Positions 5,485-53,202 of a stretch of DNA of 64,000 bases are shown here, piece after piece. Source of the DNA: Paludibacteraceae bacterium (GTDB lineage: Bacteria; Bacteroidota; Bacteroidia; Bacteroidales; Paludibacteraceae); assembly GCA_017451525.1 (NCBI GenBank), contig JAFTOD010000004.1:149015-213014 (forward strand), written 5' to 3'. Position 1 is the first letter of the stretch. Every line of letters starts with the position of its first letter. Both the position numbers and the translations under genes were made by a program. A model generated the notes under the pieces. The model did not search any database. It had not been told where the DNA came from and worked only from the letters and a program-made list of their open reading frames with translations.

Positions 5485-6159
5485 ATGAAACCAATTATTG
5501 TAGCCATTGATGGCTATTCATCTTGTGGCAAGTCCACAATCGCAAAGGCACTCGCCAAGTATGCAGGTTATACCTATGTCGATACAGGAGCGATGTACCG
5601 CGCTGTGGCGCTGTATGCATTTAGGTTATTAGGCGATGAGGCGATAAGGCGAGAGGCGGTGATTCCTATTTTGACCAACATACATATAGGTTTTATTCAA
5701 GCTGCAGATGGTCAGCATGTGACGCTGAATGGCGAGGATGTAGAGTCGCAGATTCGTACACTGGAGATAGGTAACTTGGCTTCGCAAATCTCTACTATCA
5801 AAGAGGTACGTGCGTTCCTTGTGGCACAGCAACAAGCGATGGGCGAAAAGAAAGGTATTGTGATGGACGGAAGGGATATAGGTACAGTGGTTTTCCCACA
5901 AGCAGAGCTAAAACTCTTTCTCACCGCTTCGCCCGAAGTGCGTGCAGAGCGTCGATTCAAAGAGTTGGAAGCTAAAGGTGAGAAGCCAGTTTTAGAGGAA
6001 GTATTGGCTGATGTGAACGACCGCGACTATCGCGACACACACCGTGCGGAGAGTCCACTACGTCAGGCAGAAGATGCTGTAGTAGTGGATAATAGCGAGA
6101 TGACACGTGAGGAGCAGATGGCGAAAATCGTGGAGATTTTCGATCGCGCTACGCGCTGA
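5485..6159 (+). CDS. cmk: Cytidylate kinase
   Basis: Phosphorylates CMP and dCMP with ATP in the cytoplasm. The 224 residues contain the P-loop at about 10-17 (GYSSCGKST), the VDTGAMYRA segment, the DGRDIGT motif and the C-terminal DRDYRDTHRAESPL region that binds substrate. Full length for the family. The final codons (RATR) are encoded by the mini-hairpin GCGC-TAC-GCGC at 6146-6156, and the TGA follows directly, so the repeat tract between cmk and ispH begins inside the gene. Translationally coupled to porQ (1-nt gap). Confidence 0.96.
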   Translation: MKPIIVAIDGYSSCGKSTIAKALAKYAGYTYVDTGAMYRAVALYAFRLLGDEAIRREAVIPILTNIHIGFIQAADGQHVTLNGEDVESQIRTLEIGNLASQISTIKEVRAFLVAQQQAMGEKKGIVMDGRDIGTVVFPQAELKLFLTASPEVRAERRFKELEAKGEKPVLEEVLADVNDRDYRDTHRAESPLRQAEDAVVVDNSEMTREEQMAKIVEIFDRATR

Positions 6160-6290
6160 TAGATGTTAGACCGCTGCGCTATTGTTTAGGGGACGCTCGC
6201 AGGGCGAGCTATTGGTTAGAGGTTAGAGGTTAAAGGCGAGAGGTTAAAGGTTAAAGGCGAGAGGTTAAAGGTTAAAGGCGAAGGATGAAG
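6146..6290. repeat. Heptamer array with mini-hairpins between cmk and ispH
   Basis: The left part has mini-hairpins GCGC-TAC-GCGC (6146-6156) and GCTCGC-AGG-GCGAGC (about 6194-6208), the second in the context GGAC-hairpin-TATTGG. From 6214 to 6290 there are 11 contiguous 7-bp units: GGTTAGA twice, then GGTTAAA and GGCGAGA in alternation, GGCGAAG and GATGAAG. The last unit contains the ispH start codon. No mobile gene or target duplication is seen. Confidence 0.85.
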
Positions 6291-7181
6291 ATTACGATAG
6301 ATGAGAATTCGGGATTTTGTTTCGGTGTGACGACTGCTATTGAGACTGCCGAACGTGAACTACAGAAGGGGCAACTCTTCTGCCTCGGAGATATTGTACA
6401 CAATGGTCAAGAAGTGGAGCGACTAGACAAACTGGGATTAGAAACCATTGACTATGACGACTTACGCACTTTGCACAATGTACGCGTGTTGCTGCGCGCT
6501 CATGGAGAGCCACCTAGTACCTATCATATCGCCAAACGCAATAATATTGAGATTATTGATGCTTCGTGTCCTGTGGTATTGCACTTGCAAAAGCGTATTC
6601 GTGATACCTATTTGCAGCATCATGGCACAGACGCACAGATTGTCATTTTCGGCAAAAAAGGACACGCCGAGGTGATTGGATTAGAGGGACAAACCAATAA
6701 TACGGCTATCGTGATTGAGAGTATCCACGATTTGGATAAACTGAACTATGAGCACCCAATATACCTCTTCTCACAAACGACTAAGTCGGTAGAGGAGTTT
6801 CATGCGATAGTAGATAAGATTAAGGAGATGAGGCGATTAGGCGAAGAGGCGAAAGGCGAGGAGATTGTATTTGAATATCACGATACGATTTGTAGGAATG
6901 TAGCTAATCGTGTGAAGAAATTGCAGGATTTTGCTCGGAGTAACGATGTGGTGGTGTTTGTAGGAGGAAAGAAGTCATCGAATGCAAAAGTGCTGTACAA
7001 TCATTGTTTGGAAGTGAACTCTAGCACGGTTTTTGTGAGTAGTGAAGCAGACCTTACACCTGAGATACTGCAGCAATGCCACGCGGCAGAACGAGTGGGT
7101 ATCTGCGGAGCGACCTCTACCCCGAAGTGGCTGATGGAGCAGCTTCGCTGCAGTTTAGAGAACGGCGCAAAGCGCCTATAG
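6285..7181 (+). CDS. ispH: 4-hydroxy-3-methylbut-2-enyl diphosphate reductase
   Basis: Last enzyme of the MEP isoprenoid pathway, an iron-sulfur reductase making IPP and DMAPP. The three cluster cysteines are visible at C12 (SGFCFGV), C95 (DASCPVV) and C203 (DTICRN), with the H-N-G-Q-E-V motif near 39-44 and a C-terminal GATSTP. Two odd features are linked to the repeat family. Residues about 183-193 (EMRRLGEEAKG) are coded by GGCGANN units and look inserted. The last nine residues and the stop lie in a heptamer/mini-hairpin tract (7151-7207). The start codon sits in the last unit of the upstream array. Function should be intact because the catalytic residues are all present. Confidence 0.95.
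   Translation: MKITIDENSGFCFGVTTAIETAERELQKGQLFCLGDIVHNGQEVERLDKLGLETIDYDDLRTLHNVRVLLRAHGEPPSTYHIAKRNNIEIIDASCPVVLHLQKRIRDTYLQHHGTDAQIVIFGKKGHAEVIGLEGQTNNTAIVIESIHDLDKLNYEHPIYLFSQTTKSVEEFHAIVDKIKEMRRLGEEAKGEEIVFEYHDTICRNVANRVKKLQDFARSNDVVVFVGGKKSSNAKVLYNHCLEVNSSTVFVSSEADLTPEILQQCHAAERVGICGATSTPKWLMEQLRCSLENGAKRL
6825..6863. repeat. Repeat insertion inside ispH
   Basis: Four GGCGANN units spaced 8, 8 and 7 bp. The words match those of the intergenic array just upstream of the same gene (GGCGAGA, GGCGAAG). It reads through in frame between the substrate-binding part and the third cluster cysteine. Confidence 0.6.
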
Positions 7182-7207
7182 TTTAAAGTTTATAGTTTAA
7201 TGGTAAG
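7151..7207. repeat. Heptamer array with mini-hairpin spanning the ispH stop
   Basis: GTTTAGAGAAC, hairpin GGCGC-AAA-GCGCC (7164-7176), then TATAGTT, TAAAGTT, TATAGTT, TAATGGT in 7-bp register. The ispH TAG (7179-7181) is inside the first TATAGTT unit. The same GTTTAGAGAAC-hairpin-TA(C/T)AGTTTA layout occurs between murE and mraY. Confidence 0.8.
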
Positions 7208-8211: not shown

Positions 8212-10866
8212 ATGGTAACTAACGATGATATCGTAGTCACTGGCGCGCGCGTACATAATCTAAAGAATGTAGATGTGCGTATTCCACGAGAAAAACTAGT
8301 GGTGATTACTGGCTTGTCGGGTAGCGGCAAATCATCCCTAGCCTTTGATACCATCTTTGCCGAAGGACAACGCCGATATATGGAGACATTCTCCTCTTAT
8401 GCGCGCGGATACATAGGTACAATGCAACGCCCTGATGTGGATAAGATTACAGGTCTCTCGCCTGTCATCAGCATTGACCAAAAGACCACTTCGCGCAATC
8501 CGCGCTCTACCGTTGGTACAGTCACAGAGGTGTATGATTTTCTGCGTCTTCTCTTCGCTCGTGCTGCGGATGCATACTCCTATGCTTCGGGCGAGAAGAT
8601 GGTGCAATATACCGATGACCAAATTATTGATCTTATTCTCAAAGATTATACGGGTCAGAAGGTGCTCGTACTTGCCCCAATGGTCAATAACCGTAAAGGA
8701 CACTACAAAGAACTCTTTGAGACTATTCGCCGTAAGGGCTATTTATATGTGCGTGTGGATGGCGAAGTACAAGAGATTTACGCAGGCATGAAGCTTGATC
8801 GCTACAAGAACCACACCATTGAAGTAGTCGTAGATCGCCTCAAATTAAAAGGCGAAAGCGAAGAAGATCTCAAACGCCTTCGTGCCACCGTGGACAAAGC
8901 CATGACACAAGGCGATGGCGTGATGGCAATAGCCCTACCATCTAACCGTGTCAGCGGTCTAATTTCTAACAGCGAACAACGTGAGCGGTCTAATATTCGC
9001 TATTTCTCTCGCCACCTCATGTGTCCTACTACGGGCATGAGTTATGCCGAACCAGCGCCACATACCTTCTCTTTTAACTCGCCACAGGGGTGGTGCCCTT
9101 GCTGCCGAGGATTAGGAAAAATCAAATCGGGACTCGGGAATCGGGAATCGGATAATGAGGAATTAGACAACATTATCAAGGATGATGAGAATTGGTACAC
9201 GCGCATGTTGGCATATGTACAACAGGGCGATGATGAAAAAGAGGATAAGGAGGAAGAAATATTGATTACTTGCCCTGTGTGTCAAGGGCAACGTCTCAAT
9301 CGTGAAGCACTTAGTTTCCGCATCGCAGATAAGAATATCGCCGAACTGTCGGCTATGGACATAACTGACCTCAGGGCATGGCTGATGAATGTCCCTGCCT
9401 GCCTAACTAACAAGCAACGCGCTATTGCAGAACCGATTATCAAAGAAATTATCTCTCGTCTGGGATTTATGCTGAGTGTGGGCTTATCTTATCTCTCCCT
9501 CTCTCGCTCATCGGATAGCCTTTCGGGTGGTGAGAACCAACGCATTCGTTTGGCTACACAAGTGGGCAGTAAGTTGGTCAATGTCCTCTATATTCTTGAC
9601 GAACCAAGTATCGGTTTGCATCAACGCGATAATCAACGCCTCATTGATTCGCTCAAGCAACTGCGCGATATGGGTAACTCGGTCATTGTCGTAGAGCATG
9701 ACGAGGACATGATGCGACAAGCAGATTATATCATAGATATTGGTCCTAAAGCGGGTCGATTGGGTGGGCATATCGTCTTTAGTGGCACACCTGCCGAACT
9801 ACTCAAGTCTGACACGCTGACTGCCAAATACCTCAGTGGCGAACTCTCCGCAACTTTGCCAATCACTAATAACCAATCGCCAATTGCCAACGCCCTCGTT
9901 CTTCGAGGCTGCCGCGGTAACAATCTTAAAGGTGTAGATGTCTCTTTCCCTTCGGGAAAGATGATAGCCGTGACGGGTGTGTCGGGTAGTGGTAAATCCA
10001 CTTTGGTAAATCAAACGCTTTATCCAATCTTGAGCCAACATTTTTACCGTAGTTTGCGTGCGCCTTTGGCATATGAGAGTATTGATGGAATTGAGCATAT
10101 TGATAAGGTTATCGCAGTAGATCAGTCGCCTATCGGACGTACACCGCGAAGTAACCCAGCGACTTATACGGGCGTGTTCACGGATATACGCAACCTCTTT
10201 GCCCAGCTACCAGAGAGTAAGATTCGCTCATGGAAAGCGGGTCGTTTCTCGTTTAACAACTCGGGTGGACGATGTGAGGAGTGTAGCGGAAATGGTTACA
10301 AGACTATCCAAATGAATTTCTTGCCGAATGTGTATGTGCCATGCGAAGTATGTGGTGGGAAGCGCTACAACCGTGAGACATTGGAGGCACGCTTCAAAGG
10401 CAAGTCTATTGCCGATGTATTGGACATGACCATCAATCAAGCAGTAGAGTTCTTTGAGAGTCAGCCATATATCTTGAAGAAGATCAAGACTTTGCAAGAT
10501 GTAGGTCTTGGGTATATCAAACTGGGACAATCATCTACTACCTTATCTGGTGGCGAGAGTCAGCGTGTGAAGCTTGCCACAGAATTGGCTCGCCCTAGCA
10601 CTGGAAGAACATTATACATATTAGACGAACCAACCACAGGTTTGCACTTTGAGGATGTACGGGTGTTGATGGGTGTGTTGCGCCAACTGGTGGATAAAGG
10701 CAATACGGTAATCATCATTGAGCACAACCCTGATGTCATTCGTTCGTGCGATTATCTTATTGATATGGGACCAGATGGCGGTCGTGATGGTGGTACCGTA
10801 GTGGCCACAGGCACCATAGATGATATTCGCAACAATCCAAAGAGTATAACTGGAAGATACATTTAA
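8212..10866 (+). CDS. uvrA: Excinuclease ABC subunit A, short form
   Basis: Damage-sensing ATPase of nucleotide excision repair. Both ABC modules are present: Walker [10 protein letters not shown] (about 34-42) with signature LSGGENQR, and GVSGSGKST (about 588) with LSGGESQR. The second zinc finger is intact (CEEC...CEVC). At 884 residues it is shorter than the usual 930-950. The cysteines expected after FARAADAY are missing, and the stretch between GLGKI and CPVCQGQR is reduced and partly made of repeat-coded sequence. This fits the second UvrA class seen in Bacteroidota, so a canonical uvrA may exist elsewhere. Two heptamer tracts lie in it, at 9127-9154 and 9859-9893. The stop overlaps the convergent exosortase gene. 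Confidence 0.93.
9127..9154. repeat. Heptamer array inside uvrA (first)
   Basis: Four exact 7-bp units: TCGGGAC, TCGGGAA, TCGGGAA, TCGGATA. They code for part of a poorly conserved loop between GLGKI and the acidic stretch that follows. Confidence 0.85.
9859..9893. repeat. Heptamer array inside uvrA (second)
   Basis: Five 7-bp units: CCAATCA, CTAATAA, CCAATCG, CCAATTG, CCAACGC. They lie in the linker between the two ATPase halves (protein [14 protein letters not shown]). Confidence 0.85.
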
Positions 10867-15405: not shown

Positions 15406-15474
15406 CATTATCCCATAGCCCTCGTAGTGTCCCCATAGACCTCAGGGCGTCCATTAAGTATTCCTTTATCATTT

Positions 15475-15518
15475 ACGTAGGATATACGTAACATATACGT
15501 AGGATATACGTAGGATAA
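15475..15518. repeat. Undecamer array (11-bp period)
   Basis: Four clear units: ACGTAGGATAT, ACGTAACATAT, ACGTAGGATAT, ACGTAGGATAA. The same word recurs in the array before trmO (52405-52459). Pyrimidine-rich sequence continues to about 15665 with a weaker hint of 11-bp spacing (CCCTATCTTCC, TCCTATCTTCT). Confidence 0.85.
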
Positions 15519-17049: not shown

Positions 17050-17135
17050 CCCTTACCCAATAGCCCAACGGGCGTCCTATAGCTTCGCGTCCTTTACCCA
17101 ATAGCCCAACGGGCGTCCCATAGCTTCGCGTCCAT
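17050..17135. repeat. Mini-hairpin repeat, two copies of a 41-bp unit
   Basis: Each unit contains CCAATAG, the hairpin GCCC-AAC-GGGC, GTCC and a small GC-AAGC element; the two units begin at 17054 and 17095 with few mismatches. Read on the minus strand it gives GGAC-hairpin-TATTGG, the same grammar as the insertion in murG (40416-40477) and the cmk-ispH spacer. Confidence 0.85.
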
Positions 17136-17167
17136 TATCCTGAAAATTGCGAAAAATTTGCTATTTT

Positions 17168-18705: not shown

Positions 18706-19752
18706 ATGAAGCAAATAGTAACTATATTTTGTGCGCTAGCATTGCTGGTTGGCTGCAAAAAAGTGACAGTAGATTTTACATACTCACCTACAGCACCCAA
18801 GGCAGGAGAAACTATCAAGTTTACCAACAATAGTAGCGCAGGCGAGAGTTGGGCATGGACCTTTGGCGATAATACAACCAGTGTGACCAAAAATCCGAGC
18901 AAAGTGTATAAAAAACCAGGTGAGTATTTGGTAACACTGATGGTGGATAGTGCCAAATATCAGACACGTAGCCAACTAATCACTGTTTACGACACGATAC
19001 CTACTTTTGTAGTATCGTCCGATTCTATCCTACACTACCATGATGTCACTTTGAAGGCGAATGTATATAATCCCTTTAAGTACGAGCTGACTTATCAGTG
19101 GACTTTACCCGATAATGCAATCATTGTGGCAGGCAACTTGAATAGCGCATCGGTGGAAGTGTACTTCACTACTGCTGGAGCCGCAGAAGTTGGGTTGACG
19201 ATTCTCCAAAAGGACAAGCAGTATGATATTGAGCGTACACTCACCATTCATCCTGCCAAGGCACCTGCTATCGTCATGCGCAAAACGGACAAGACAGTGG
19301 CGCGTCAGCGCATAATCAACGACCGTTTAGAGCAACCTGCCAATGCCACTAGCCAAGATGTACATCTCATTGAGCAAGCATGCGATACAGCAATCACTTT
19401 CAATGGCACTACTTTCACAGCAAGTCAATTGCCTGCGCAGGTGGCAGGTCTTGCTGGTATGCAGGTGGAGCATCTGCAAATAGATGCTATGCAAATGAAG
19501 TGGTATATCACCACGCCTAATGGATTATTTGTCGCCTCCTTTGATGGTAGCAATATCACTCCTATTGATGCAGAAGCTACAGGAGCTATCTTTGTGGACG
19601 ATACGCGCAGCCGTATCTATTGGGCGACCCTATCGGGAGTGTTTGCCATGCCATTAGTCAAGAGCAAAAACAATCAGTTCACTACTACGCCTCAGCAATA
19701 TAATGAACTCAATAACATTGACCTAATCATAGTCAATAACACGCCTCAATAA
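18706..19752 (+). CDS. PKD-domain lipoprotein
   Basis: A predicted outer-membrane or surface lipoprotein of 348 residues. The signal peptide ends in the lipobox LLVGC with C17. A PKD domain follows (about 22-100, with the WTFGDNTTS motif and a typical TVYDT end), then a second beta-sandwich (about 103-185). The C-terminal part (about 190-345) has a YWTD-like IYWATLSGVFAMPL stretch that suggests part of a beta-propeller. Function is unknown; PKD domains serve protein-protein or carbohydrate contact. Its stop codon starts a 7-bp repeat array that runs to the glycogen synthase ATG, which suggests a shared transcript. Confidence 0.78.
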   Translation: MKQIVTIFCALALLVGCKKVTVDFTYSPTAPKAGETIKFTNNSSAGESWAWTFGDNTTSVTKNPSKVYKKPGEYLVTLMVDSAKYQTRSQLITVYDTIPTFVVSSDSILHYHDVTLKANVYNPFKYELTYQWTLPDNAIIVAGNLNSASVEVYFTTAGAAEVGLTILQKDKQYDIERTLTIHPAKAPAIVMRKTDKTVARQRIINDRLEQPANATSQDVHLIEQACDTAITFNGTTFTASQLPAQVAGLAGMQVEHLQIDAMQMKWYITTPNGLFVASFDGSNITPIDAEATGAIFVDDTRSRIYWATLSGVFAMPLVKSKNNQFTTTPQQYNELNNIDLIIVNNTPQ

Positions 19753-19793
19753 CTCATCACTTATAACTCATAGTTCATCACTCACTACACATG
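19745..19793. repeat. Heptamer array filling the PKD lipoprotein-glycogen synthase gap
   Basis: Seven consecutive 7-bp units: CTCAATA, ACTCATC, ACTTATA, ACTCATA, GTTCATC, ACTCACT, ACACATG. The TAA of the upstream gene lies across units 1 and 2, and the downstream ATG is the end of unit 7. Confidence 0.88.
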
Positions 19794-27759: not shown

Positions 27760-30700
27760 TTATTCCACGCGAACTTTTTTCACGCCGCTGCTGGTACGTA
27801 TTAGATACAAACCAGCACTTGGTACTGTGAATGAAGCGATACGTGTGTGTGGCTGTTGTTCGATCAAGTGACCTACTAAGTCATATAGAGCAATATCTTG
27901 CGCTTGAGTAGCCTCCACGGTTATTGTCCACTGTTCAACCAAAATAGTGATACCATCGTAGATATTTTCTACGCCCACTTGATTTGGTATGAATGTAGGC
28001 ATTACCGTATAGTCTTTGTCCATGACAAGTACGAGTACAGAGTCGGTGTTTACCTCATCGTTAACAACCCACTGATCAAATAGGTAGTCAGTGTCTGCAA
28101 TAGGTAATAAGGTGACTTCTTCGCCTTCTTGATAAGTGTAAGTACCTGCTTCCATATTTGCTTTACCATATTCACCTGGCAAGATGGTTAGCGTGTAGGT
28201 AGGAATTGGCTTGCTCACACATACTGGATATACGCTATAATCTTGTGTCATCACGAGCGTGAGCGTTTCAGTTGTGTTCTCGATACCATTCACTACCCAG
28301 TGGTCAAATACATATCCATCGTATGGAAGTGGAGTAATAGTTACCTCTTCATTCTCTTTATAGGTATAAGAGCCTGCAGCCATGCTTGCAAGACCATTTT
28401 CACCTTCAGAGATGGTCAGCGTGTAGGTAGGAATGCGACTGAAACTAGCTGTGAGATAGTAGTCTTGGTTCATAACCAATGTGCGTTTAGCATTGGTGTC
28501 GCCATCATCCCACATCTTGAATCGGTATCCATTCTTAGGTGTAGCAACGATTTCTACAGTCTCACCATCTACGTAATCACCATTGACTTCTTCGTTTACA
28601 GTACCAGCATTTTCATTCTCTGTGGAAATAAATAATGAGTATTTCATTACTAAAGTTACTGTTTTAGAATCTTCAATACCAATCTGTTGATCGGAGGCAT
28701 TCAATGGCTTGATTGTTACGGTGTATGTTCCTAACTTCTTAGCAGTATATTTATACACTTTACTGTCATCAGTAATATCCACTTTCTCGCTGTGCTCAAC
28801 TTCATTATTGCGATCGGTGATTACTACTTCGAAGCGTGTAGCAATACTCTCCCATTTAGCAGTAATTCGTTTGTTGCTGCTAGTAACGCTCAGGTTCGTA
28901 ATGTCATAGTTAGATGCGATACGTTTGAATGTAGCATGTAACTCTACATTTTGTGTCATTGTAATGTCACGTACACTATTCTTATCGCCATCGCTCCAAC
29001 TTACGAACTCAAATCCTTCATTTGCTTGTGCAGTGATAGTAACTACAGAACCAGCAGCATATGATGGTTGATCTGGTGTCTTAGTTACAGTACCACCTTC
29101 ACCAGCTGTAAGGGTCAGCGTGAATTGCTCTTTTTGTTCTTCAACAAATGTAGCGTGCAATACCATATCTTGGGTCATCGTAATACTGCGTACATTTTCA
29201 GTATTTCCGTCGCTCCATTGTACGAACTTGTAGCCTTCATTTGCGTTTGCAAAGATAGTTACTGTAGAGTTCTCCTCGTAGTATTCATAGTTTGGATTTT
29301 TACCTACCGTACCACCTTCATTGCATGTAAGAGTCAGTGTATAGTTGTTAGTAGGAATGCTTGTACTGCGGAATGTTGCAGTCAAGTTGTAATCCTTATC
29401 CATCACGATAGTACGTTGTGCCGATGTATTACCATCGCTCCAAGTAACAAATTCATAGCCGTCATTAGCAATTGCTGCAATAACTACTGATGTGCCATCT
29501 TCGTATGATGGTTGATCAGGTGTCTTAGTTACAGTACCACCTTCACCAGCTGTAAGGGTCAGCGTGAATTGCTCTTTCTGTTCTTCAACAAATGTAGCGT
29601 GCAATACCATATCTTGAGTAATTGTAATACTACGTACGTTTTCAGTATTTCCATCGCTCCAACGCACAAACTTGTATCCTTCATTTGCATTAGCAAATAT
29701 TAATACAGTAGCATTTTCTTCGTAGTAATCTTGTTCTGGAGCACGTCCTACAGTACCGCCTTCGTCGTACGTGAGCGTGAGCGTGTAGTTATTAGCAGGA
29801 ATAGTTGTGCTACGGAAAGTAGCAGTCAAGCTATAGTTCTTATCCATCACAATAGTACGTTGCGCGGAGGTATTGCCATCGCTCCAAGTAACAAATTCAT
29901 AACCTTCGTTAGGTGTAGCAGTAACAATTACTTGTGTACCCGCCTCATATTGCTCTGCTTGTGGTGAAACATCTACACTACCGCCCTCTGTTGCATCAAC
30001 CATGAGTGTGTAGTAAACGATAGGTTGTTCTTCCACCTCGAAGTAAGCTCGCAATTCATAATCTTGTGTCATAACAACGATTCGTTGTGCAGAAGTATCG
30101 CCATCGCTCCAACTTACGAATTTATAACCAGTATGCGCTACTGCGGTCACTGCAACTTCTGTGCCTTCATCATAACAATCATAAGAAGGATTTGCATATG
30201 CATAACCACCTTCTTCCGCGGTTACAATCAGTGTATAGCATTCGGATGTAGAAACACATTCTGTTGGGTATATGCTATATTTATTATTCCAATCAGATTC
30301 ATCTATATCACCAATCATCAAACAAATGTCACCGACAACACCCTCATAATCTACGGTTTGTTGGCTACCAACCCAATCGTTGATAGTAACATCTGTATTA
30401 ACTGCCAAACAGTTGATTGTACTTTCTGTTGTAATAATAGTTGCTGTATACCAACCCTCATCATCTATGGTTGTACCTGCTAGTCCGTATTCATACACAT
30501 CATCTGTCCACCACCAAATATACAATCCATTGGATATATCCATAGTACTATTCTCATCCTTCTTTACACGAATGGTGAAAGAATATTCTTCTGTAGAAGT
30601 ACTTGTGAATTCAGCAGTAAGAGAGAGGTCTTCTGTCATAACTATTGTGCGAGGGTTATCTGTGCTACCATCGCTCCATTGAGAGAACTGATAGCCATCA

Positions 30701-33700
30701 TAAGCCTCTGCAGTTAGAGCAACTTCTGTGCCTTCATCATAGCAATCTGCCTCTGGAGACACAAGCACATAACCTCCATCATTTGCAGTAACATTCAATG
30801 AGTAGCAAGGAGTTTCTGGAATAGTAATGGCAATATTCAAATAGTATGCAGGTGAGGTATAGTACATCGTATCCGCATCTACAGAACGTATTTGGAATTG
30901 ATATAAGCCAGTTTCGGTGAGTGTATCGCAATAGTGATTGGTGTTGATAAATTCACTATTCAATAATTCACCAGAATTATCATACATCCAAACTCGATAT
31001 AGAGGAGCTTCACTTACCCATGTAACATTTACGATAGAATCGTTGGTTGTGGAGTATGTCAAGTCATAAATCTCAGGATCTACACATCCTTCTAAACTGA
31101 TTGTAAATGTTTGTTGTACAGCATCACCAGCGTAATCGCCTTCGGCGGTTGAATACATCGGAATAACTTGCCAAATATATTCACCTGCATCCAAAGGATC
31201 TACATTGCTACAGTTCTTGTTAAAGTCAATTATTCCATATACTACAGTTTCCCCATTGGAGTTGAATACAGAAACCTCATAATATGGTGCATCTGATGTC
31301 CACGAAACGTGTGCAAAGCCACAGTCTGTGGTTATGACCAAATCAGAAACAGGATACGTCAATCTACTAAACTGAGCAGTAAGGGTTGTGTATTCTGTGA
31401 TTGTCAAAACACGTGGGTTTTCTGTGCTACCATCGCTCCATTGAGTGAATTGATATCCTTCATAAGCCTCTGCAGTTAGAGTAACTTCTGTGCCTTCCTC
31501 ATAGCAATCAGCCTCTGGAGAAATATTCACATGACCACCCTCTGTAGCATCAACAACTAATGTATAGCATGGAGTAGGAGCGTCAGTGCCTTCTGGATAG
31601 TGTTGATAGATGTATCCCTTAATCTCTGGCGTTGTACCAAGATAGTTTTGCAAATTACCATATACTACTACATTATCACCCAATGCTATTTCATGACCAG
31701 TAGTAAAGTCTGAATTGTTCAACCACTTGGTGTTGTAGCAATAGAATTGGTTGTTGGTGGTACCATCATCAGAAATATCGAAGCGTGCTCGTGTGTATAG
31801 CACAATCTCTTCAGGAGTATTTCTCATATGTGAAATTACTCCAGATACGAAGTATGGTATTGTTGTCATATCCGTATGCTCAAGACTTTGTGTCAATTCT
31901 AACGCTTCTGCCGCAGTCAATGCAGTTACACCTATACCAGAGAAATCTTCATTATTGTACGAAGTTAACAATTCTGAAGATATAGTACAAATATTAGCGT
32001 ACGTTTTACCTGTACCGTCAGTGATATCAAAACTGAATACATAATTATCCTCATTATCGCGCATTACCGTTACCACACCACTGACAAATGAATCTGAAGT
32101 AATACCGTTGTAACTGATATTTGAATATTCTATAGAACAATCACCAGGATTGTAGGATGCTTGTACGATATATGTACCTAAGATAGAATTATCATAATCA
32201 GAATACAAATCTAATCTCAAATGGGTTTTTCCATCTTGAGAGAAGAGATGGATTTCTTTATTATTGGCACCATATCCAAGTACATAACCATTCGTAAAGT
32301 TCAAATCATACTCCCAATTGCTATACACAATGTCAAATGATATATTTTGCCATGATGAGAATTGCGTTTGATCCTCGTTGTATCCTAGAACATAAAAACT
32401 ATATCTACCCATTTCTGGAAGAGTATAAGAGTAACTATTGGTATTGATATACTCATCTGCAATGAGATTATTTTGATAGTCATACAATTGCACGTGATAT
32501 ACATACGCTTCGCTATTCCAAGTCAAATTCACTGTTGTGTCATCTGTGATAGTATAGCTGAGGTCGTGTATCTCAATATCTACGCAGTTGTCAGCACTAA
32601 TCGTGAATGGCGCTTGTACAGCTTCACCTGCATAATCGCCTTCTGAATTTGAATACATTGGGCGAACTTGGCAATAATAATCACCTTCTTCATATGGATT
32701 AGAATTGCTAACACCGTCTTTGTAATGGTTTGGTACAAGGTCATAAAGGACAACTGTTCCATCTATACTATACATAGTTAGTTCGTAATATGGCGCATCA
32801 CCTTCCCATGAAGCATATGCTTTTCCGCAGTTGGTAGTCACTACCAAATTGGTTACAGGATAGGTCAATATTGTAAACTCTGCGGTAAGTGCAATATCCT
32901 CGGTGAGTGTCAAGATGCGTGGATTGTCGGTGTTACCATCGCTCCATTGAGTAAATACATAGCGCTCTTCTGGATATGCCTCAATAGTCACGGTATTGGT
33001 TGCGCAATCCGATGCGGTAATCTGTGCATAACCACCTTCGGTAGTTGACAGTGTAACGGTGTAGTTGCTACCTTGCAGATTCAGATCTTGCCATACAGAG
33101 GTTGCCAAGTATGTATCAAGTGCTGTACATGGCACGAAGATTGTTGCTTCGGATTTGAATGTAGAGCTTGAAATCGTAGGTGGCGTTGTTCCTTCCATAA
33201 CGATAGTAGGACAGTAATAGAACGCCCAACTTCCGATTTCTGTTACGCTTGCAGGAATTGTGACGGATGTCATTGCATAGCAGTACTCAAATGCGCTACC
33301 ATGGATAGTTGTTATACCATCGCCTAAATCTACAGAAGATAAATTATCACAGTATGCAAAAGCAGAATATCCAATAGATGTTACGCTATTAGGTATGGCA
33401 ATAGTTGTTAATCCTTCGCAACCGTAGAATGCTTTATCTCCGATAGTTGTTACTGTTTCGGGGATAATCGTGGATTGGCAACCAGCAATAAGAGTATTGC
33501 TTGCTGTTTCGATGATAGCATTGCAGTTGTTGCGGCTATCGTAAGCGGTATTGCCACTCTCCACTACAATCGAATTCAGCGAGTTGCAACTTACAAAAGT
33601 TGAATATCCAATGTAACTTACGCTGGCTGGGATTGTAACTGATGATAGTGAACTACAATCAGCAAATGCATAACTGTCTATAGTAGTTACGTTATTACCG

Positions 33701-36700
33701 AAGGCTACAGCGGATAAGTTGTAGCAATATCCGAACGCATAATTTCCAACATACGTTACATTATTAGGAATAGTAATTGATGTTAAACTTTCGCAGTCAT
33801 AGAAAGTACGATCTTCAATACTTGATATATTCTCCGAGAGTGTAACGGATTCGAGTGATCGGCAATAGGCAAATGCCATACGTCCTATGCTTGTCACGCT
33901 ATTTGGAATGGTCACTGACGTCAAATATCCACATTCCTTGAATGCGTTTTCACTAATAGATGTCACGGTATAGGTTGTGCCATTATACGTCACTACAGTC
34001 GGAATGGATACGTTTCCAGAATAATCGGTTGCGCATTTTACTACTGTAGCTGTACCATCCTCATTGAGTACATAAGTAAGAGGATATTCGGTGGTGTTCA
34101 ATGGTGTGGTAATCGCCATGTTGTCCACTGCGATAGGCATTTCGCCAATAGAGCCATCGTTATACCATCTCAAGCAGAGGTTGTATTCACCATCTACACC
34201 TGCTATAGCGCTGAAATATTGCCAATCGGTTTGTCCGCTCAAGTATTCGCCCAATTGGATTGCACTATTTGGGATATAGGTGCTACCAGCAATAGGAGTG
34301 CATCCTTTAGGGAATAAATATACTTGTAAATCATCACAATAAGATTCCCCTTCACCTTTCCAATAGAATGTGATGGAATCTATTGCGGTTACTGTGACTG
34401 GTATATATGCCCAAGAGGTAGAGCTTGCATTGTTATTATAGGTGTAGTTGTTTCCGTCCGAAGTGATGTACAACGCGTTGCTACCGCTGTCCATTGAACC
34501 TGCGGCAGAGCCTATGGTCCAATAGTTGGTTTGACCATTTTGTACGAAACGCCATTGTGCATTAGCCTCTGTATCCTCAAAGTCATGCTCCGTAGTATAT
34601 TCCATTGGACTGCAAGGAATCTCGTATAGATTGTAATTGTAGTTATAGATCCAATCCTTTGCACCAATTGCTAAGCAGACATCACCCGTGATGTTAGTAT
34701 AGTCTATAGTTTGCTGCCCTGTCCAATCATTAGTATTTACGGCTAAACAGTTGATAGAGCTTGCAGTAGAAGTAATGGTTGTAGTGTACCAACCATCATC
34801 TCCTAAGGTCATATTCGCTAATTGTCCTGCTTGGTCATTATACCACCACCACAAGTACAATCCATTGGAGAGATCCATATCGCTAACATCATCTTTCTTC
34901 ACGCGAATGGTGTAGTCATTTTCTACACTTTCTGCTCCTTCTACCGTGAATTCATAACGAGCATAACCATTGTTATTGACATACAGATAGAGGTATGCTT
35001 TGTTTCCTACCACTTCTACTGCAACTGGTGCTGTACGGCAACCGTTACCTGCGCTACCCATACCATTTGCAGGTAAATACCATAGAGGTTCCATACCGCT
35101 GAATGCGCGGTCCGCATCAGCGAACTTGTAGAGTGCGAAAGAAGAAGGAACGGATGAATTAGTATAACCTGCAGCCATCAAAAGGAAGTACTCATTGCCT
35201 ACTTGGAACTCAACGAGACCATTGTGACCAGTGTTCATATTGAGTATTTCTCCTTCTGCATTATTAACTGATGTACCATATGGACAATTAATGAAGTCCT
35301 CTATTAAACGACCATCTTCATCAAACAACATTGGCAAAGTGTTGTATCCATCCACATAGAAGCGTTCTCCTTTCTCATCTAATGGGAAAATATGAGATGC
35401 TGTGTAGAAACCACTTTGAGCCCAAAACAATGTGTGGTCTGAGTCAATGTCAATAGAGCAGTCTATCTGCTCACCCTCTTGAACCACACCATCTACAATC
35501 AACCAGCGATATACTAACCAATTGCCATAAGTAGCATCAGCAGCCATGATTACACCATCCGTGGTAATATCACCAGCTACACCAAATGCATCGAAGCGGC
35601 AAGAAATATCTGCGTAGTCAGGGTTATCAGCCAAGCGTTCGCTAAAGAGTAAATCTGCCTCACCAGTCTCAATATCTACTACATAAATCATGAAGTGTTC
35701 ATTAGGACTAGTGATTAGAGCACCTACCAAGCAGTGACCTTCTTGGTCAAATTTGATGTCGTTGAACGGGAAAGTAACCGCACTACTCCATGTGCCGTCT
35801 TCGTTTTCTTTTTCGAACAAATGCTCGCCAGTAATCTTAATAGAAGCCAGCATTTCGCCTGTTTCACCATCTACCACCACGATGGATTGTGTCTCGCGGT
35901 TAATGAAATACATCTTACCATCTTTTGCCGCCATACCGCGAACGTAGCCTTCAGAACCAGGCATATTATCCGCGAAATTACCCTCTATATTGGAGATGAC
36001 CCAATTGTTCGTTAAAGTGTATTTTCCATCATAACGAGCAGGATATTCATATTGGTCTTTTTTTGCAGTACTTACCTTTTCAATGCCAGCTACATCACCA
36101 ACGAATTCAAATGTACCATTGTGTAAAGAAGCTACGGCAGTAATAGACACTTTTGTACCTACAGGGAATGTTGATTGGTCTGGCATCATATAGTAGCCCT
36201 GCACTTTGTTCGCTCCATCTATATCAGCAATAAATATATCACCATAAGAGTCGTATTCAGCGACATAAACACCCAGCACTGACACGCGTTGACCGAAGTA
36301 TTTTAATGGGTCAGCAAGCAATTCTGCCAATGTAGAAACTATCGGAGTGGCAAATTCTGCTGATTCTGCAGATTCAATCACAGCCCCCGATAATGTAGGT
36401 TTTCCATACAATGAACCACGTGTACCCTTGGCAACAATCTTGGTGCCAACTTCAGGCTTTGTTCCGCTGCAAGATAGATGGAATCCTCCAGTAGCATCTT
36501 GAATAAACACATCAGTACCGCGTACCCAGTTGACTACACCAGAAATCTTAGTTTCTACGCCATCTTCCATTGCCCAAACCTCAGCAATCGTTGGGATGTA
36601 CTCTACCCATTTTGCGTAAAGCGTGCCAGTGGTTTCTGCATTTACGGTAGTCACTTTCTCGCCAGAGAAGTCAGCAGTTGCATACCAACCATCAAACGTA

Positions 36701-40031: not shown

Positions 40032-41201
40032 TTACTTCTTGGCAAGTTTCATCACCTCCTGTGCAATATGTTTAGCAGAGTCGGGTAGGGATAGTTTGAG
40101 GATATTCTTGTGTAGTGATTCCAGTTGCTTATCATCCTTTATCAATGGCAGCGCAGTAGCTATCAATGCGTCCTTGGCATCTGCATCTTTTACCAAAACA
40201 GCCGCATCTTTCTTGACCAACGCTATAGCGTTGTGCGTTTGATGATCTTCGGCTACGTTAGGCGATGGCACCAAGATAGATGGCTTGCCCAACAGACAGA
40301 GTTCGGATATTGATGACGCGCCTGCACGCGAAATCACTAAGTCCGCCAGCGCATATGCTAGTGGCATCTGACTAACGAAGTCGGTGCAGATGATTGCAGG
40401 TAACTGGCAATCATCGGACGCCCCTATTGGGCTATTGGACGGCGTTCCGCCTATTGGACGCGCGAGTGCGCTATTGGTAAGTGCTGCTTTGCAGTCCGCA
40501 AAGTAGTTCTTTCCCGTTTGCCAAATCACTTGTATTCCGCTTTCTATCAGTTCGTTGAGGTGCGCAATGATGCTTTGGTTGATGGTGCGCGCACCTAGAC
40601 TACCGCCTATGATGAGTAGCGTCTTCTTCTCTGTGGTGAAGTTCACACCAAACTCCTCGTTGAAGTATTTTATAGCTTCCTCTTTTGTGCCTGAAGTCAA
40701 GTTCTGGCGCACAGGGTTACCTGTGAGGATGATTTTATCCTTTGGGAAGAAACGCTCCATACCTTCGTATGCCACGCAAATCTTCTTGGCATCATCTTTC
40801 AGCAGTTTGTTGGTCACTCCTGCAAAGCCATTTTGCTCTTGCAATAGGATGGGTACTCCCATTTTCGCTGCCACTTTCATGGCTGCACCACTGGCATAGC
40901 CACCCACACCTATTCCCACATCTGGACGGAAATCGCGCACAATCTTACGCGCTTGTATCATTGAGCGTATTAGGTCAATCACTACGAGGATATTCTTCCA
41001 TGGGCGACTACGGTCAAATCCTTTGACAGGCAGACCGATAATCTTATATCCAGCTTGTGGTACGCGCTCCATTTCCATACGTCCGAGTGCTCCCACAAAT
41101 AGTATTTCGCAATTAGGGTCAGCTTCGCGCAATGCGTTTGCTATGCTTACGGCAGGGAAGATATGCCCTCCTGTTCCGCCACCAGAGATTAGGTACTTCA
41201 T
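40032..41201 (-). CDS. murG: UDP-GlcNAc:lipid I GlcNAc transferase
   Basis: Membrane-associated GT28 enzyme making lipid II. The 389 residues contain the N-terminal SGGGTGGHIFPA loop, GVGGYASG, LLQEQNGFAGVTN, GGSLGA, and the C-terminal SRAGASSISEL and PSPNVAEDHQ donor site. Between GKNYFADCKA and VTDF-like ICTDFVSQM there is a repeat-coded insertion of about 25 residues (LTNSALARPIGGTPSNSPIGASDDCQ). It lies at a surface loop, so activity is probably kept. It has its own promoter and is separated from ftsW by 350 bp; the usual downstream murC and ftsQ-A-Z genes are not here. Confidence 0.94.
   Translation of the reverse strand: MKYLISGGGTGGHIFPAVSIANALREADPNCEILFVGALGRMEMERVPQAGYKIIGLPVKGFDRSRPWKNILVVIDLIRSMIQARKIVRDFRPDVGIGVGGYASGAAMKVAAKMGVPILLQEQNGFAGVTNKLLKDDAKKICVAYEGMERFFPKDKIILTGNPVRQNLTSGTKEEAIKYFNEEFGVNFTTEKKTLLIIGGSLGARTINQSIIAHLNELIESGIQVIWQTGKNYFADCKAALTNSALARPIGGTPSNSPIGASDDCQLPAIICTDFVSQMPLAYALADLVISRAGASSISELCLLGKPSILVPSPNVAEDHQTHNAIALVKKDAAVLVKDADAKDALIATALPLIKDDKQLESLHKNILKLSLPDSAKHIAQEVMKLAKK
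40416..40477. repeat. Mini-hairpin/CTATTGG insertion inside murG
   Basis: Three units, each GGAC, mini-hairpin, CTATT: hairpins GCCC-CTATT-GGGC, GGCG-TTC-CGCC, GCGC-GAGT-GCGC. The hairpin stems differ but pair in each case, so pairing and not sequence is kept. The same layout is found between genes at 17050-17135 and 6190-6216. Confidence 0.85.
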
Positions 41202-41421: not shown

Positions 41422-41465
41422 GAGTTCTTAGGTTCATCATTGGTTCATCCTTGGTTCGTCCTTGG
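41422..41465. repeat. Undecamer array upstream of murG
   Basis: Four 11-bp units sharing the end TAGG/TTGG: GAGTTCTTAGG, TTCATCATTGG, TTCATCCTTGG, TTCGTCCTTGG. Confidence 0.78.
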
Positions 41466-41514
41466 TCTTTTACACGAGAAAAACAAGGAAGGTACAAGGG
41501 AGATAAATCTTAAT

Positions 41515-45482: not shown

Positions 45483-45532
45483 CTTTAAACTCTAAACTGT
45501 AGCCGCTTTGCGGCGTTCTCTAAACTATAAAC
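45483..45532. repeat. Heptamer/mini-hairpin spacer between murE and mraY
   Basis: On the minus strand: TTTATAG, TTTAGAG, AAC, hairpin GCCGC-AAA-GCGGC, TACAGTTTAGAG, TTTAAAG. The murE stop TAG (45525-45527) is the end of the first unit. Nearly the same arrangement closes ispH on the other strand at 7151-7207. Confidence 0.82.
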
Positions 45533-47009
45533 ATCCCTTCACCACTTCATGGTCATCAAAGTGGTGCTTCACACCTTTAACTATCTGATAATCTTCGTGT
45601 CCTTTGCCTGCCACCAGTATCACATCGCCTTGTCTAGCCAACGTGCAAGCCGTCTTGATAGCCGACTCTCGATCTTCTATAATCAGCGTATGGCGCAATT
45701 CCTCGTTGGTCAACCCTGCAGCCATATCTTTCAGAATATCAGCAGGTTCTTCATCGCGAGGATTATCAGATGTCAAAATCAGTTGCGTACTCAATTGATA
45801 TGCACTCTTCGCCATAATCGGACGTTTACCTTTATCTCTATTGCCACCGCAACCCACCACTGTGATCACTTGTGCGGGGGCAGACTGTTTCCCTACATTC
45901 GCCGCCACAATCTCGTTGATAGTCTTCAGCACATTCTCCACCGCATCGGGGGTGTGCGCATAGTCTATCACTGCTGTCCAGCCCTTTGGCGAGCGGATAG
46001 TCTCAAAGCGACCATTCACAGGTTGCAACCCACTCAAGATACGCAGCACTTCCATCGCATCTTCACCCAATGCCACCGTAGCACCATAGATCAACAGCAA
46101 GTTGCTCACATTGAACCGACCTACCAGCGGCACAAACACTTCCGTATTCACCGCACCCAACGTACTCTGTACGCGCAGCAGCATACCATCGAAGCCCTCC
46201 TCCAGTATCTTGCCACGGAAATCCGCCATGCTATGGGTGGAATAAGTCAGCACGCGACCGCGACAGTTTTGCGTCATCACGAGTCCATTCCTATCATCAA
46301 TATTCGTTATTGCAAACGCCTCTTTGCCCAATCGGTCAAATAGCACTTTCTTCGTATCGCGGTAGTTATCAAACGTCTTGTGATAATCCAAATGGTCGCG
46401 TGTCAGATTCGTGAACAACGCGCCTGCATACTCCAACCCTGCAATACGCTCTTGAGCGATGGCGTGGCTACTCACTTCCATAAACGCATGCGTACAACCT
46501 GCTGCTACCATCTTGGCTAGCAATGCATTCAGTTCCAATGCATTAGGCGTCGTATGCGTCGCAGCCACTGCCTCATCATCCACATAGTTCACCACCGTCG
46601 AAAGCAATCCTGCCTTGTAGCCCAATGCTTTGAAAAGTTTGTATAGCAATGTTGCGGTAGTCGTTTTGCCATTCGTACCTGTCACGCCCACCAATTTCAG
46701 TTTCTTGCTAGGTTCACCATACCAATAGTGCGCCATCTTGCCCAACGCCTCATCGCTGTTTTTGACCAGGATATAGCATACGCCATCATCCTTGATATAT
46801 TCCTCTTTCTCCAGTACCACGGCTACTGCACCTTTCGCCACACATTGCTCAATATACGCGTGTCCATCGGCTGCTGTACCCACTTGCGCCACAAACAAAC
46901 AACCCTCACCCACACGGCGCGAATCAAACTGAATATCAGTCACTTCCACGTTCGTATCGCCTACAACTCGCAATACTTCAATATCAGCCAACAAATCTTG
47001 TATTCTCAT
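45525..47009 (-). CDS. murE: UDP-MurNAc-tripeptide synthetase (diaminopimelate-adding)
   Basis: Adds the third residue of the stem peptide. The 494 residues (from ATG at 47009) contain the ATP loop GTNGKTTTATL, the THTTPNALEL segment and the DNPRDEEP motif, which marks meso-diaminopimelate as substrate. The start is set at 47009 (MRIQDLL), right after a 7-bp repeat array; a GTG four codons upstream would lie inside the array. The stop lies in another array. Position in the cell-division cluster is standard, between ftsI and mraY. Confidence 0.95.
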   Translation of the reverse strand: MRIQDLLADIEVLRVVGDTNVEVTDIQFDSRRVGEGCLFVAQVGTAADGHAYIEQCVAKGAVAVVLEKEEYIKDDGVCYILVKNSDEALGKMAHYWYGEPSKKLKLVGVTGTNGKTTTATLLYKLFKALGYKAGLLSTVVNYVDDEAVAATHTTPNALELNALLAKMVAAGCTHAFMEVSSHAIAQERIAGLEYAGALFTNLTRDHLDYHKTFDNYRDTKKVLFDRLGKEAFAITNIDDRNGLVMTQNCRGRVLTYSTHSMADFRGKILEEGFDGMLLRVQSTLGAVNTEVFVPLVGRFNVSNLLLIYGATVALGEDAMEVLRILSGLQPVNGRFETIRSPKGWTAVIDYAHTPDAVENVLKTINEIVAANVGKQSAPAQVITVVGCGGNRDKGKRPIMAKSAYQLSTQLILTSDNPRDEEPADILKDMAAGLTNEELRHTLIIEDRESAIKTACTLARQGDVILVAGKGHEDYQIVKGVKHHFDDHEVVKGCL

Positions 47010-47051
47010 ATCTCTAAACACTAAACTCTAAACACTAAACACTAAACACTA
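47007..47051. repeat. Heptamer array filling the ftsI-murE gap
   Basis: Minus strand, in exact 7-bp register: TAGTGTT three times, TAGAGTT, TAGTGTT, TAGAGAT, then ATG. The first TAG is the ftsI stop and the murE start codon follows the sixth unit directly. Confidence 0.9.
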
Positions 47052-52195: not shown

Positions 52196-52305
52196 TATTT
52201 CAGCGTTTTTTTTCTAAAAAATGAATATTTGCTTGCAAAAATCGCTAAAATACTAGAAAGAAATGCTACCATCACTCCAAAATATACAGCCGAAACGAAT
52301 AATTA

Positions 52306-52459: not shown

Positions 52460-52476
52460 ATAGCAGTTAAAAAGCA

Positions 52477-53202
52477 ATGAAGCTCGATATTATAGCATAC
52501 GCACGAAATGGCTTTTCGCAGAAGTTTGGCATCCCTCGACAAAGTAGGGAGGATTCTTGTCTTGAGACACATATAATATTTACGCGCGCGTATCGCGTAC
52601 GCGAAGCTTTGCGAGGAATAGAGGATTACTCACATCTGTGGCTGCTCTGGGGTTTTTCCGCGAATACAAAAGAAAAACCTGCCACCTGTCAACTGTCACC
52701 TGTCAACTGTCAACAGCCATGGTCTCCCACGGTGCGTCCGCCTCGTTTGGGTGGCAATAAGCGCATGGGAGTATTTGCCACGCGCTCTCCTTTCCGTCCT
52801 AATCCCATAGGATTGACCAGTGTGAAGCTGCTGCGCATTGAGGAAACCGCGAATGATGGTCTTGTCCTCGTTGTTTCGGGGGCGGACTTGCTGGATGGTA
52901 CACCGATATACGACATCAAGCCATACTTGGCATTTTCTGATAGCCATCCCGATGCAAAAAGTGGTTTTGCGGAAGCTACGCAAGATTATTTTTTGGAAGT
53001 GCAGATTGATGAGGGCTTGTTGAAAAATGCGCGTGCGCAGTCATGCCCATGGGAAGCGTTGAAAGAAATCTTGAGTCAAGACCCGCGCCCTGCTTATCAG
53101 ACTGATTCAGAGCGAGTTTATCACCTTGATTATGCTGAATGGCAAGTAGATTTTCAAGTTGAAAATGCAACCGTTTGCATAAAAAACTTGCGCAAAAAAT
53201 AG
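52477..53202 (+). CDS. trmO: tRNA (t6A37) N6-methyltransferase
   Basis: SAM-dependent enzyme of the TrmO/TsaA (YaeB) family that methylates t6A37 of tRNA-Thr, downstream of TsaD chemistry. The 241 residues show PRQSRE, IEDYSHLWLLW, PRLGGNKRMGVFATRSPFRPNPIG (the family signature), DLLDGTPIYDIKPY and a C-terminal HxxD-like end. Between KEKPA and WSPTVRPPR there is a repeat-coded insert (TCQLSPVNCQQP) made by five heptamers. No typical promoter is seen; the upstream region is an undecamer array. Confidence 0.92.
   Translation: MKLDIIAYARNGFSQKFGIPRQSREDSCLETHIIFTRAYRVREALRGIEDYSHLWLLWGFSANTKEKPATCQLSPVNCQQPWSPTVRPPRLGGNKRMGVFATRSPFRPNPIGLTSVKLLRIEETANDGLVLVVSGADLLDGTPIYDIKPYLAFSDSHPDAKSGFAEATQDYFLEVQIDEGLLKNARAQSCPWEALKEILSQDPRPAYQTDSERVYHLDYAEWQVDFQVENATVCIKNLRKK
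52679..52713. repeat. Heptamer array inside trmO
   Basis: Five exact units: CTGCCAC, CTGTCAA, CTGTCAC, CTGTCAA, CTGTCAA. CTGTCAA also occurs in the array before the 17240 gene. Confidence 0.88.

What the first reader, a model, noticed from the sequence alone, without database searches (positions are those of the whole stretch)
6146..6290. Heptamer arrays join genes: stop and start codons lie in the repeat units
Between cmk and ispH, 11 contiguous 7-bp units run to the ispH ATG, and the cmk stop follows a GCGC mini-hairpin. The same pattern holds in four further junctions: ftsI-murE (47007-47051), PKD lipoprotein-glycogen synthase (19745-19793), murE-mraY (45483-45532) and ispH-pfkA (7151-7207). 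In ftsI-murE and the PKD case the array runs from the stop codon of one gene to the start codon of the next with no other DNA. A 7-bp period is not a codon multiple and has no obvious coding use. Cyanobacterial STRR heptamers are the nearest known analogue; I know of no description of such codon-flush arrays in Bacteroidales.
Basis: partly seen in the sequence, partly recalled or inferred. Interest (0 to 1): 0.87.

Follow-up and report, generated by a model that had tools for sequence, protein, structure and literature searches.

The report
Hairpin-and-heptamer repeats between and inside genes
A gut bacterium carries short repeats made of 7-letter units and tiny DNA hairpins that fill gaps between genes and also sit, in frame, inside working genes; each half resembles repeats already known in other bacteria, but the mixture looks new.

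Summary
The heptamer arrays are real and far beyond chance: 38 period-7 arrays in a 664-kb sample of the genome against 0.4 in shuffles, and seen in other genomes of the genus. Heptamer repeats beside or overlapping start and stop codons are already in print, including a set near a start codon in Paludibacter, a Bacteroidales genus.

Many arrays also carry a hairpin unit, GRAC-[stem, mostly 3-nt loop, stem]-TAY, with constant tags and many stems (54 cores among 80 units). Hairpins and heptamers mostly join in whole units: 77 of 81 spacings are 1 modulo 7, 64 of them direct abutments. Units or heptamers also sit in frame in MurG, LigA, RecQ, an aldehyde dehydrogenase and TrmO. At one LigA linker, related genomes carry different hairpins or none.

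Best reading: REP/Rickettsia-palindrome-like hairpin units plus slippage-type heptamers, tolerated at gene junctions and protein linkers; flush codons are a by-product. The mobilising enzyme is unknown; no Y1_Tnp was found in this genome or in G014, which has the most units. Novelty lies in the hybrid.

The parts
6146..6156 (+). GCGC-TAC-GCGC mini-hairpin at the 3' end of cmk, directly before its TGA
   Evidence: sequence
6173..6179 (+). minimal hairpin GC-TGC-GC followed by TATTG, after the cmk stop
   Evidence: sequence
6191..6212 (+). beta hairpin unit GGACGCTCGCAGGGCGAGCTAT (6-bp stem, 3-nt loop)
6214..6284 (+). heptamer array GGTTAGA/GGTTAAA/GGCGAGA, ten units plus G, up to the ispH ATG
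   Evidence: TRF; lag-7 test
7160..7179 (+). alpha hairpin unit GAACGGCGCAAAGCGCCTAT across the 3' end of ispH; the ispH stop TAG (7179-7181) begins in its 3' tag
7177..7207 (+). about three heptamers TATAGTT/TAAAGTT before pfkA
   Evidence: 2 of 2000 shuffles (0.008 over all lags)
9127..9151 (+). heptamers (A)ATCGGG read in frame inside a uvrA-like gene
   Evidence: Pfam only, not aligned to homologues
15413..15453 (-). two degenerate beta units next to an 11-bp array
   Evidence: flank matches without intact stems
17058..17137 (-). four beta hairpin units, same strand, between tandem genes
19753..19790 (+). heptamers filling the whole PKD protein-glycogen synthase gap
   Evidence: not found by TRF or by the detector
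40416..40477 (+). three beta units, antisense and in frame inside murG (residues 243-263 of 389)
45483..45532 (-). alpha hairpin unit (45499-45518) with heptamers on both sides, murE-mraY gap
47014..47051 (-). TGTTTAG heptamers filling the ftsI-murE gap, stop codon inside
52677..52714 (+). CTGTCAA heptamers read in frame inside trmO, giving residues absent from the solved homologue HI0510 (1xqb)

Best explanation
These are hybrid, non-autonomous repeat arrays made of two kinds of unit that mostly join in whole pieces: plain heptamers and hairpin units (constant tags GRAC and TAY around a GC-rich palindrome, usually with a 3-nt loop). Shown: the units, their whole-unit joining, their enrichment in gene gaps, their in-frame presence in core genes, their presence, absence or replacement at the same site between related genomes, and reuse of the same stems at different loci. 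Inferred: hairpin units spread as REP- or Rickettsia-palindrome-like elements that copy from site to site, by an enzyme or replication process not identified; heptamers grow and shrink by replication slippage; both survive where they do little harm, that is, just after stop codons, up to start codons, and in protein linkers. Stop and start codons lie in the units because the units have replaced the old spacer and themselves contain TAG or TAA. No regulatory role is needed to explain the pattern.
For: Tag-defined cores (stem not required, only outer G and C fixed) still pair: inner pairs 85% (core length 11, 13 unique), 90% (12, 7 unique), 95% (13, 14 unique), 71% (14, 6 unique), 95% (15, 8 unique) against 55, 65, 52, 42 and 50% when partners are shuffled; lengths 7 and 9 (4 unique each) do not vary in the stem and say nothing; 79 of 106 matches have odd length, the mark of a triloop. 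67 units with stem of 3 or more against 7 with reversed tags in 664 kb. The pattern is rich in own (113 against 15 control), G014 (208/22), G041 (156/16), G043 (93/16), G042 (49/14), marginal in G044 (37/31), and below its control in the other 23 same-genus genomes. 44 of 80 units lie in gaps that make up about 10.5% of the sample (nominal p 1e-22, units are clustered). Junction units in six genomes: 46 tandem, 13 convergent, 1 divergent. Spacing 1 mod 7 in 77 of 81 unit pairs, 13 of the 17 not directly abutted; one of the 13 is a degenerate hairpin unit, a coincidence. Extra residues at unit sites against solved homologues: LigA, RecQ, aldehyde dehydrogenase, TrmO (heptamers); MurG has 58 residues where 3s2u has 37 and the genus loop varies. 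LigA linker in 20 genomes: own three beta units; G041 and G043 one alpha unit; G014 the same alpha unit with 14 extra in-frame residues from a nested palindrome in its loop; G042 another tag family; G044 a long insert of another kind; G002, G004, G007 other GC hairpins by eye; 11 a short linker. Slippage: alignment gaps of 21 and 14 bp in one heptamer array of own against G041 and of 7 bp against G044.
Against: No mobilising enzyme shown: no Y1_Tnp in own (84% complete), G014 (98%), G042 or G044; one hit just over the cut-off in each of G041 and G043, but hits over the cut-off also in G008 and G019, which lack the units. The slippage case is thin: the own/G041 array differs by 36 bp in all (21+14+1), and other array differences are not multiples of 7 (about 107 and 24 bp, 9 bp). 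Where kept, intact units change less than neighbouring DNA (7 of 325 against 813 of 10271 positions, p 2e-5), which neutral drift does not predict unless copies are young or converted; one changed loop was aligned as a gap and degenerate units were left out, so the contrast is somewhat overstated. Three arrays compared between own and G041 are nearly identical, so the arrays are not hypermutable. The frame is not always kept: the G041 recQ match breaks at the unit site. One event only hints at a target duplication, imperfect and judged by eye.
Confidence: 0.6

Rival explanations
1. Functional RNA elements: the hairpins and unstructured heptamers are kept because they end or stabilise transcripts and space out translation of adjacent genes, with in-gene copies as accidents.
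For: Enriched in gaps, 46 tandem and 13 convergent against 1 divergent junction units; stems kept by different base pairs; intact units more conserved than neighbouring DNA; alpha units in genes mostly sense, 11 of 12.
Against: 36 of 80 units lie within ORFs, 27 of them antisense (ORFs mechanical); beta units in tandem gaps are 17 sense and 19 antisense; the cmk-ispH and ispH-pfkA junctions of relatives have other arrays or almost none; triloops are not the usual stable RNA loop (general knowledge).
Confidence: 0.18
2. Purely local birth by replication error: heptamers arise by slippage and hairpins by template switching at each site, with no unit moving between sites.
For: Heptamer words vary widely among arrays and species; gaps of 7, 14 and 21 bp between relatives; palindromes are expected from strand switching (general knowledge).
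Against: Identical cores with the same tags recur at unlinked loci and in several genomes, e.g. GGCGTTCCGCC five times in the own sample; the four stem differences between orthologous units are all one-sided, none a double change; a palindrome of a second family sits inside a unit's loop in G014 and also elsewhere.
Confidence: 0.16
3. Phase-variation switches: array length changes turn adjacent genes on and off.
For: Array lengths differ between relatives, arrays abut start codons, and the recQ match of G041 is out of one frame at the unit site, with single stops in the matches of G042, G043, G017 and G012.
Against: Neighbouring genes are housekeeping (cmk, ispH, pfkA, murE, mraY); in-gene copies hold the frame in own LigA, MurG, RecQ and TrmO; three arrays are nearly identical between own and G041.
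Confidence: 0.06

Closest known systems
GTAG- and CGTC-tagged REPs (Di Nocera et al. 2013, PMC3733652; abstract, passages and sections 5, 8, 15 read)
   Same: Short palindromes with constant tags and alternative complementary stems, high copy, in tandem and convergent gaps, termini supplying TAG stop codons, copies inside genes including a DNA ligase; CGTC type reported in Bacteroidetes and without a dedicated transposase.
   Different: Here units ending CTAC read GTAG at one end and CGTC at the other on the complementary strand; stems 2-6 bp rather than mostly 6-13 or 8-9; mostly triloops; head-to-tail arrays are common; units are mixed with heptamers.
Rickettsia palindromic elements (review PMC10969869, passages read)
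   Same: In-frame insertions of palindromic DNA in unrelated core genes.
   Different: RPEs are about 150 bp with a conserved peptide; these units are 15-23 bp and build arrays.
Heptameric repeats: TAACTGA repeats (MacGregor 2015, PMC4679880; abstract and sections 3, 10, 15 read), GGGAATC/GGGGAYT repeats (Rehm 2015, PMC4692102; passages read), cyanobacterial STRR (recalled)
   Same: Seven-bp tandem units between genes, near start or stop codons, stop codons inside units, length differences between relatives.
   Different: Many different words in one genome, and hairpin units built into the same arrays.
BrickBuilt of Porphyromonas gingivalis (PMC4596501, abstract and outline read)
   Same: Bacteroidales tandem repeat with inverted-repeat ends.
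   Different: 23-nt unit, always intergenic, 19 copies in ATCC 33277 with leader and tail.

Membership tests
GTAG/CGTC-tagged REPs | palindrome with GTAG or CGTC tag at one end | tested here: met
   GRAC-G reads CGTC (or CGTT) on the complementary strand; GTAG only in units ending CTAC, the rest read ATAG
GTAG/CGTC-tagged REPs | stem mostly 6-13 bp (GTAG; one family 5) or 8-9 bp with A/T first pairs (CGTC) | tested here: not met
   stems 2-6 bp, outer pair G-C by the search definition; family values
GTAG/CGTC-tagged REPs | intergenic, tandem or convergent, rarely divergent | tested here: met
   46 tandem, 13 convergent, 1 divergent among 60 junction units; 55 of 115 lie in ORFs
GTAG/CGTC-tagged REPs | RAYT transposase in the genome (GTAG type) | tested here: not met
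   no PF01797 match in 4 of 6 unit-bearing genomes (own, G014, G042, G044); one just over the cut-off in G041 and in G043, not examined for flanking units
GTAG/CGTC-tagged REPs | head-to-tail pairs rare | tested here: not met
   81 distinct same-strand neighbouring pairs, 64 directly abutted; opposite-strand pairs were not counted
Rickettsia palindromic elements | in-frame insertion in core genes | tested here: met
   LigA, RecQ, MurG, aldehyde dehydrogenase
Rickettsia palindromic elements | about 150 bp with a conserved peptide | tested here: not met
   units 15-23 bp; peptides vary by frame and strand
Bacterial heptamer simple repeats (LSSR/STRR) | tandem 7-bp units far above chance | tested here: met
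   38 against 0.4
Bacterial heptamer simple repeats (LSSR/STRR) | copy number differs by whole units between relatives | tested here: inconclusive
   gaps of 21, 14 and 1 bp in one array, 7 bp in another; other differences not multiples of 7
TAACTGA repeats | one fixed word, TAACTGA | tested here: not met
   the 12 commonest own words printed are all different and none is TAACTGA; the rest were not printed
BrickBuilt | 23-nt unit, always intergenic | tested here: not met
   units of 7 and 15-23 bp, many inside ORFs

The most novel reading that the evidence does not exclude
Heptamer and hairpin unit are two states of one repeat: removing 'C + palindrome' from GGAC-[hairpin]-TATN leaves GGATATN, one of the commonest heptamers found right after a hairpin. 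If so, one lineage-specific copying process with a 7-nt step builds the array and also inserts or loses variable palindromes inside its units, and the same process writes new linkers into essential proteins. The second family (constant CACCCCA...TCGGGGACCCC shell, five different 6-bp stems in seven cores) would be another product of it.
Probability: 0.2. Interest if true: 0.8.

Novelty: new variant of a known kind. Interest (0 to 1): 0.62.

Why it matters
It ties two kinds of bacterial repeat that have been studied apart, REP-type palindromes and heptamer repeats, into one array system, and it shows the same DNA making both gene spacers and protein linkers in core enzymes. Because related genomes differ at the same linker, the question how REP-like units without an evident RAYT move, and how they stay in frame, becomes testable. 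For annotation it warns that C-termini, start sites and odd loops in this clade are partly repeat DNA.

Tried and rejected
Mobilisation by a resident RAYT: looked for Y1_Tnp (PF01797) in own and 15 relatives; 5 of the 15 match at E 0.001 (G007, G008, G019, G041, G043), 4 over the cut-off; absent in own and in G014, which has the most units, so not supported.

One mobile heptamer word: rejected, words vary within and between genomes, although 28 words recur in two or more of the 12 sets.

A general excess of GC triloop hairpins: not seen, loop length 3 is not special among all stems of 5 or more; the triloop rule holds inside the tagged family.

Compensatory change in action at orthologous units: not seen; all four stem differences are one-sided. 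Stops inside words as proof of function: dropped, since words such as GTTTAGA carry stops on both strands.

Synteny-wide comparison of the window with G041: broken after pfkA, so only patches could be aligned. G044 was treated with care: some of its stretches are 91-95% identical to own or G041 while its ispH is 83% identical to own's, so it may be a mixed bin.

Paper searches: searches returned none; some searches gave the papers cited among others seen only as listings. No paper that I saw describes mixed hairpin-heptamer arrays; the library lacks most subscription journals and one search was left unused, so this is weak evidence of absence. Mrazek 2007 is known to me only through PMC4679880 and PMC4692102.

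Mended on checking: I first had the own/G041 array difference as 35 bp = 5x7; recounting gave 36 bp in gaps of 21, 14 and 1, for which I lowered the main confidence from 0.62 to 0.6 and raised two rivals by 0.01.

Full report
The observation. The ftsI-murE and PKD-glycogen synthase gaps are filled by heptamers alone; the ispH-pfkA and murE-mraY gaps hold two or three heptamers beside a hairpin. Over 664 kb of the genome (36%, partly chosen for hairpin hits) a simple detector finds 38 period-7 arrays against 0.4 in shuffles, 32 at period 11 against 0.2, smaller excesses at 8, 9, 10 and 14, and none at 4, 5, 12 and 13. Own, G041-G044 and the five further same-genus genomes sampled (G014, G011, G017, G002, G015) have 5-27 period-7 arrays per 100 kb, Prevotella stretches 6.2, Bacteroides 2.4, and Dysgonomonas, G039, G031, G026 and the 13-kb Paludibacter stretch L005 none. 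Array words vary, though 28 recur in two or more of 12 sets.

Searching for the tags of the hairpin beside the ispH array shows a family: GGACG-N(5-20)-CTATNGG occurs 113 times in this genome against 15 for the reversed pattern, 208/22 in G014, 156/16 in G041, 93/16 in G043, 49/14 in G042 and 37/31 in G044; the other 23 same-genus genomes have 4-23 hits, each below its control; 16 genomes of other families have 1-15 hits, only G028 (5/4) and G040 (8/3) above control. Between the tags lies a palindrome. Defined by tags only, 79 of 106 matches in six genomes have odd core length, and inner pairs match in 85-95% of unique cores of length 11, 13 and 15 against 50-55% when partners are shuffled; lengths 12 and 14 give 90 and 71% against 65 and 42%. 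In the own sample 80 units have 54 different cores and 62 triloops; reversed tags gave 7 with stem 3 or more against 67, so a few of the 80 are chance. Some cores recur at many loci and in several genomes. Two contexts exist: alpha, next to GTTTAGA-type heptamers, and beta, ending CTATNGG. On the complementary strand units ending CTAC read GTAG-palindrome-CGTC.

How the two kinds of unit fit. Neighbouring hairpin units on one strand are spaced by 1+7k bases in 77 of 81 distinct pairs, 64 of them directly abutted; of the other 17, 13 fit. Eleven of these hold one extra 7-mer, such as GGATATT, GGATATA or GGATAAT; one (22 bases) is a degenerate hairpin unit and fits by coincidence; the 27- and 30-base spacers that do not fit hold an imperfect hairpin unit as well as a heptamer. 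So the two units mostly join in whole pieces. GGATATN is also what remains if C plus the palindrome is taken out of GGAC-palindrome-TATN; I offer this as the novel case, not as shown.

Where the units sit. 44 of 80 units lie in gaps, which are about 10.5% of the sample (units are clustered, so the p value is nominal). Among 60 junction units in six genomes 46 are in tandem gaps, 13 convergent and 1 divergent. Within ORFs beta units are 32 antisense to 5 sense and alpha units 11 sense to 1 antisense, a bias that may simply reflect which reading frames lack stops. In-gene copies are extra sequence where I checked: MurG has three beta units in a stretch of 58 residues where the solved homologue has 37, G014 lacks them, and the loop varies across the genus; RecQ and an aldehyde dehydrogenase have extra residues at the unit sites compared with solved homologues; LigA has heptamers at one site and hairpins at another; TrmO in the window has heptamers giving extra residues. 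An EPSP synthase family protein carries two triple arrays, not aligned to homologues.

History at single sites. At the second LigA linker the own genome has three antisense beta units, G041 and G043 one sense alpha unit, G014 that same alpha unit with 14 extra in-frame residues from a palindrome in its loop, G042 hairpins with other tags, G044 a long insert of another kind, G002, G004 and G007 other GC hairpins (by eye), and 11 of 20 a short linker. The nested palindrome belongs to a second family with a constant shell and variable stem, seven unique cores, all with perfect 6-bp stems of five kinds; a looser shell also caught one match without a stem in G008. At cmk-ispH the sister G041 has four tandem hairpin units (one imperfect) and about four heptamers where the own genome has one clear tagged unit and ten heptamers; L003 and L002 have short versions and L004 almost none. 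One heptamer array is 36 bp longer in own than in G041, aligned as gaps of 21, 14 and 1; another differs by 7 bp from G044, while a 9-bp and a 24-bp difference do not fit the step. A stretch of about 107 bp with heptamers, a hairpin and inverted heptamers is present in G041 where own has two ORFs that overlap by four bases. Against hypermutability, three arrays are nearly identical between own and G041, and intact retained units differ at 7 of 325 positions against 813 of 10271 beside them; one changed loop fell in a gap and was not counted. All four stem differences are one-sided. The frame is not always kept: the G041 recQ match parts at the unit site, and single stops lie in four others.

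Mechanism. I favour copying of REP-like hairpin units plus slippage of heptamers, both tolerated in gaps and protein linkers. Copying is inferred from recurring cores and from site differences between relatives; the enzyme is unknown, and a RAYT is not supported, being absent from own and G014 and present near the cut-off in two unit-rich and two unit-poor genomes. The slippage evidence is thin. The conservation of retained units leaves room for an RNA role. Stop codons inside units follow from the sequence of the units.

Known kinds. Heptamer repeats near start and stop codons are known in Beggiatoaceae, cyanobacteria and Bacteroidetes including Paludibacter and in Xanthomonas and Nostoc. GTAG- and CGTC-tagged REPs are the nearest relatives of the hairpin unit, including stop codons from REP termini and copies inside repair genes, but stem length, head-to-tail order and lack of a consistent RAYT do not fit their definition, so I do not file the unit there. 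Rickettsia palindromic elements are the nearest behavioural match for the in-gene copies. The hybrid is a new variant of known kinds.

Noticed in passing
window 15474-15517, 41431-41466, 52299-52462: 11-bp tandem arrays (TACGTAGGATA and others); 32 such arrays in the 664-kb own sample, 27 intergenic, against 0.2 in shuffles.
   Followed up: partly
L231, L265, L286, L167, L101, L329: Second palindrome family with constant shell CACCCCA...TCGGGGACCCC and variable 6-bp stems; two copies in the G014 ligA gene.
   Followed up: partly
G041:C21:51471-53344 (L292, L303): recQ match of G041 falls in two open frames that part at the hairpin site of the own gene; matches in G042, G043, G017 and G012 hold one stop. 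Described only.
   Followed up: no
L313-L317 (G044): Stretches of G044 are 91-95% identical to own or G041 although its ispH is 83% identical to own's: mixed bin or gene transfer.
   Followed up: partly
window 5621-5652; own stretches L143, L144, L158 and others: Eight period-8 arrays (several AGGCGATG-like), all in mechanical ORFs, none in gaps.
   Followed up: no
window 27760-39894, repeat 29060-29912: ORF of 4044 aa with a 444-bp tandem repeat.
   Followed up: no
window after 8198: Gene order shared with the G041 contig ends after pfkA.
   Followed up: no
L317 against G041 C3 stretch: One site holds three beta units in G044 and a quite different hairpin-rich stretch in G041, with matching flanks.
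   Followed up: no
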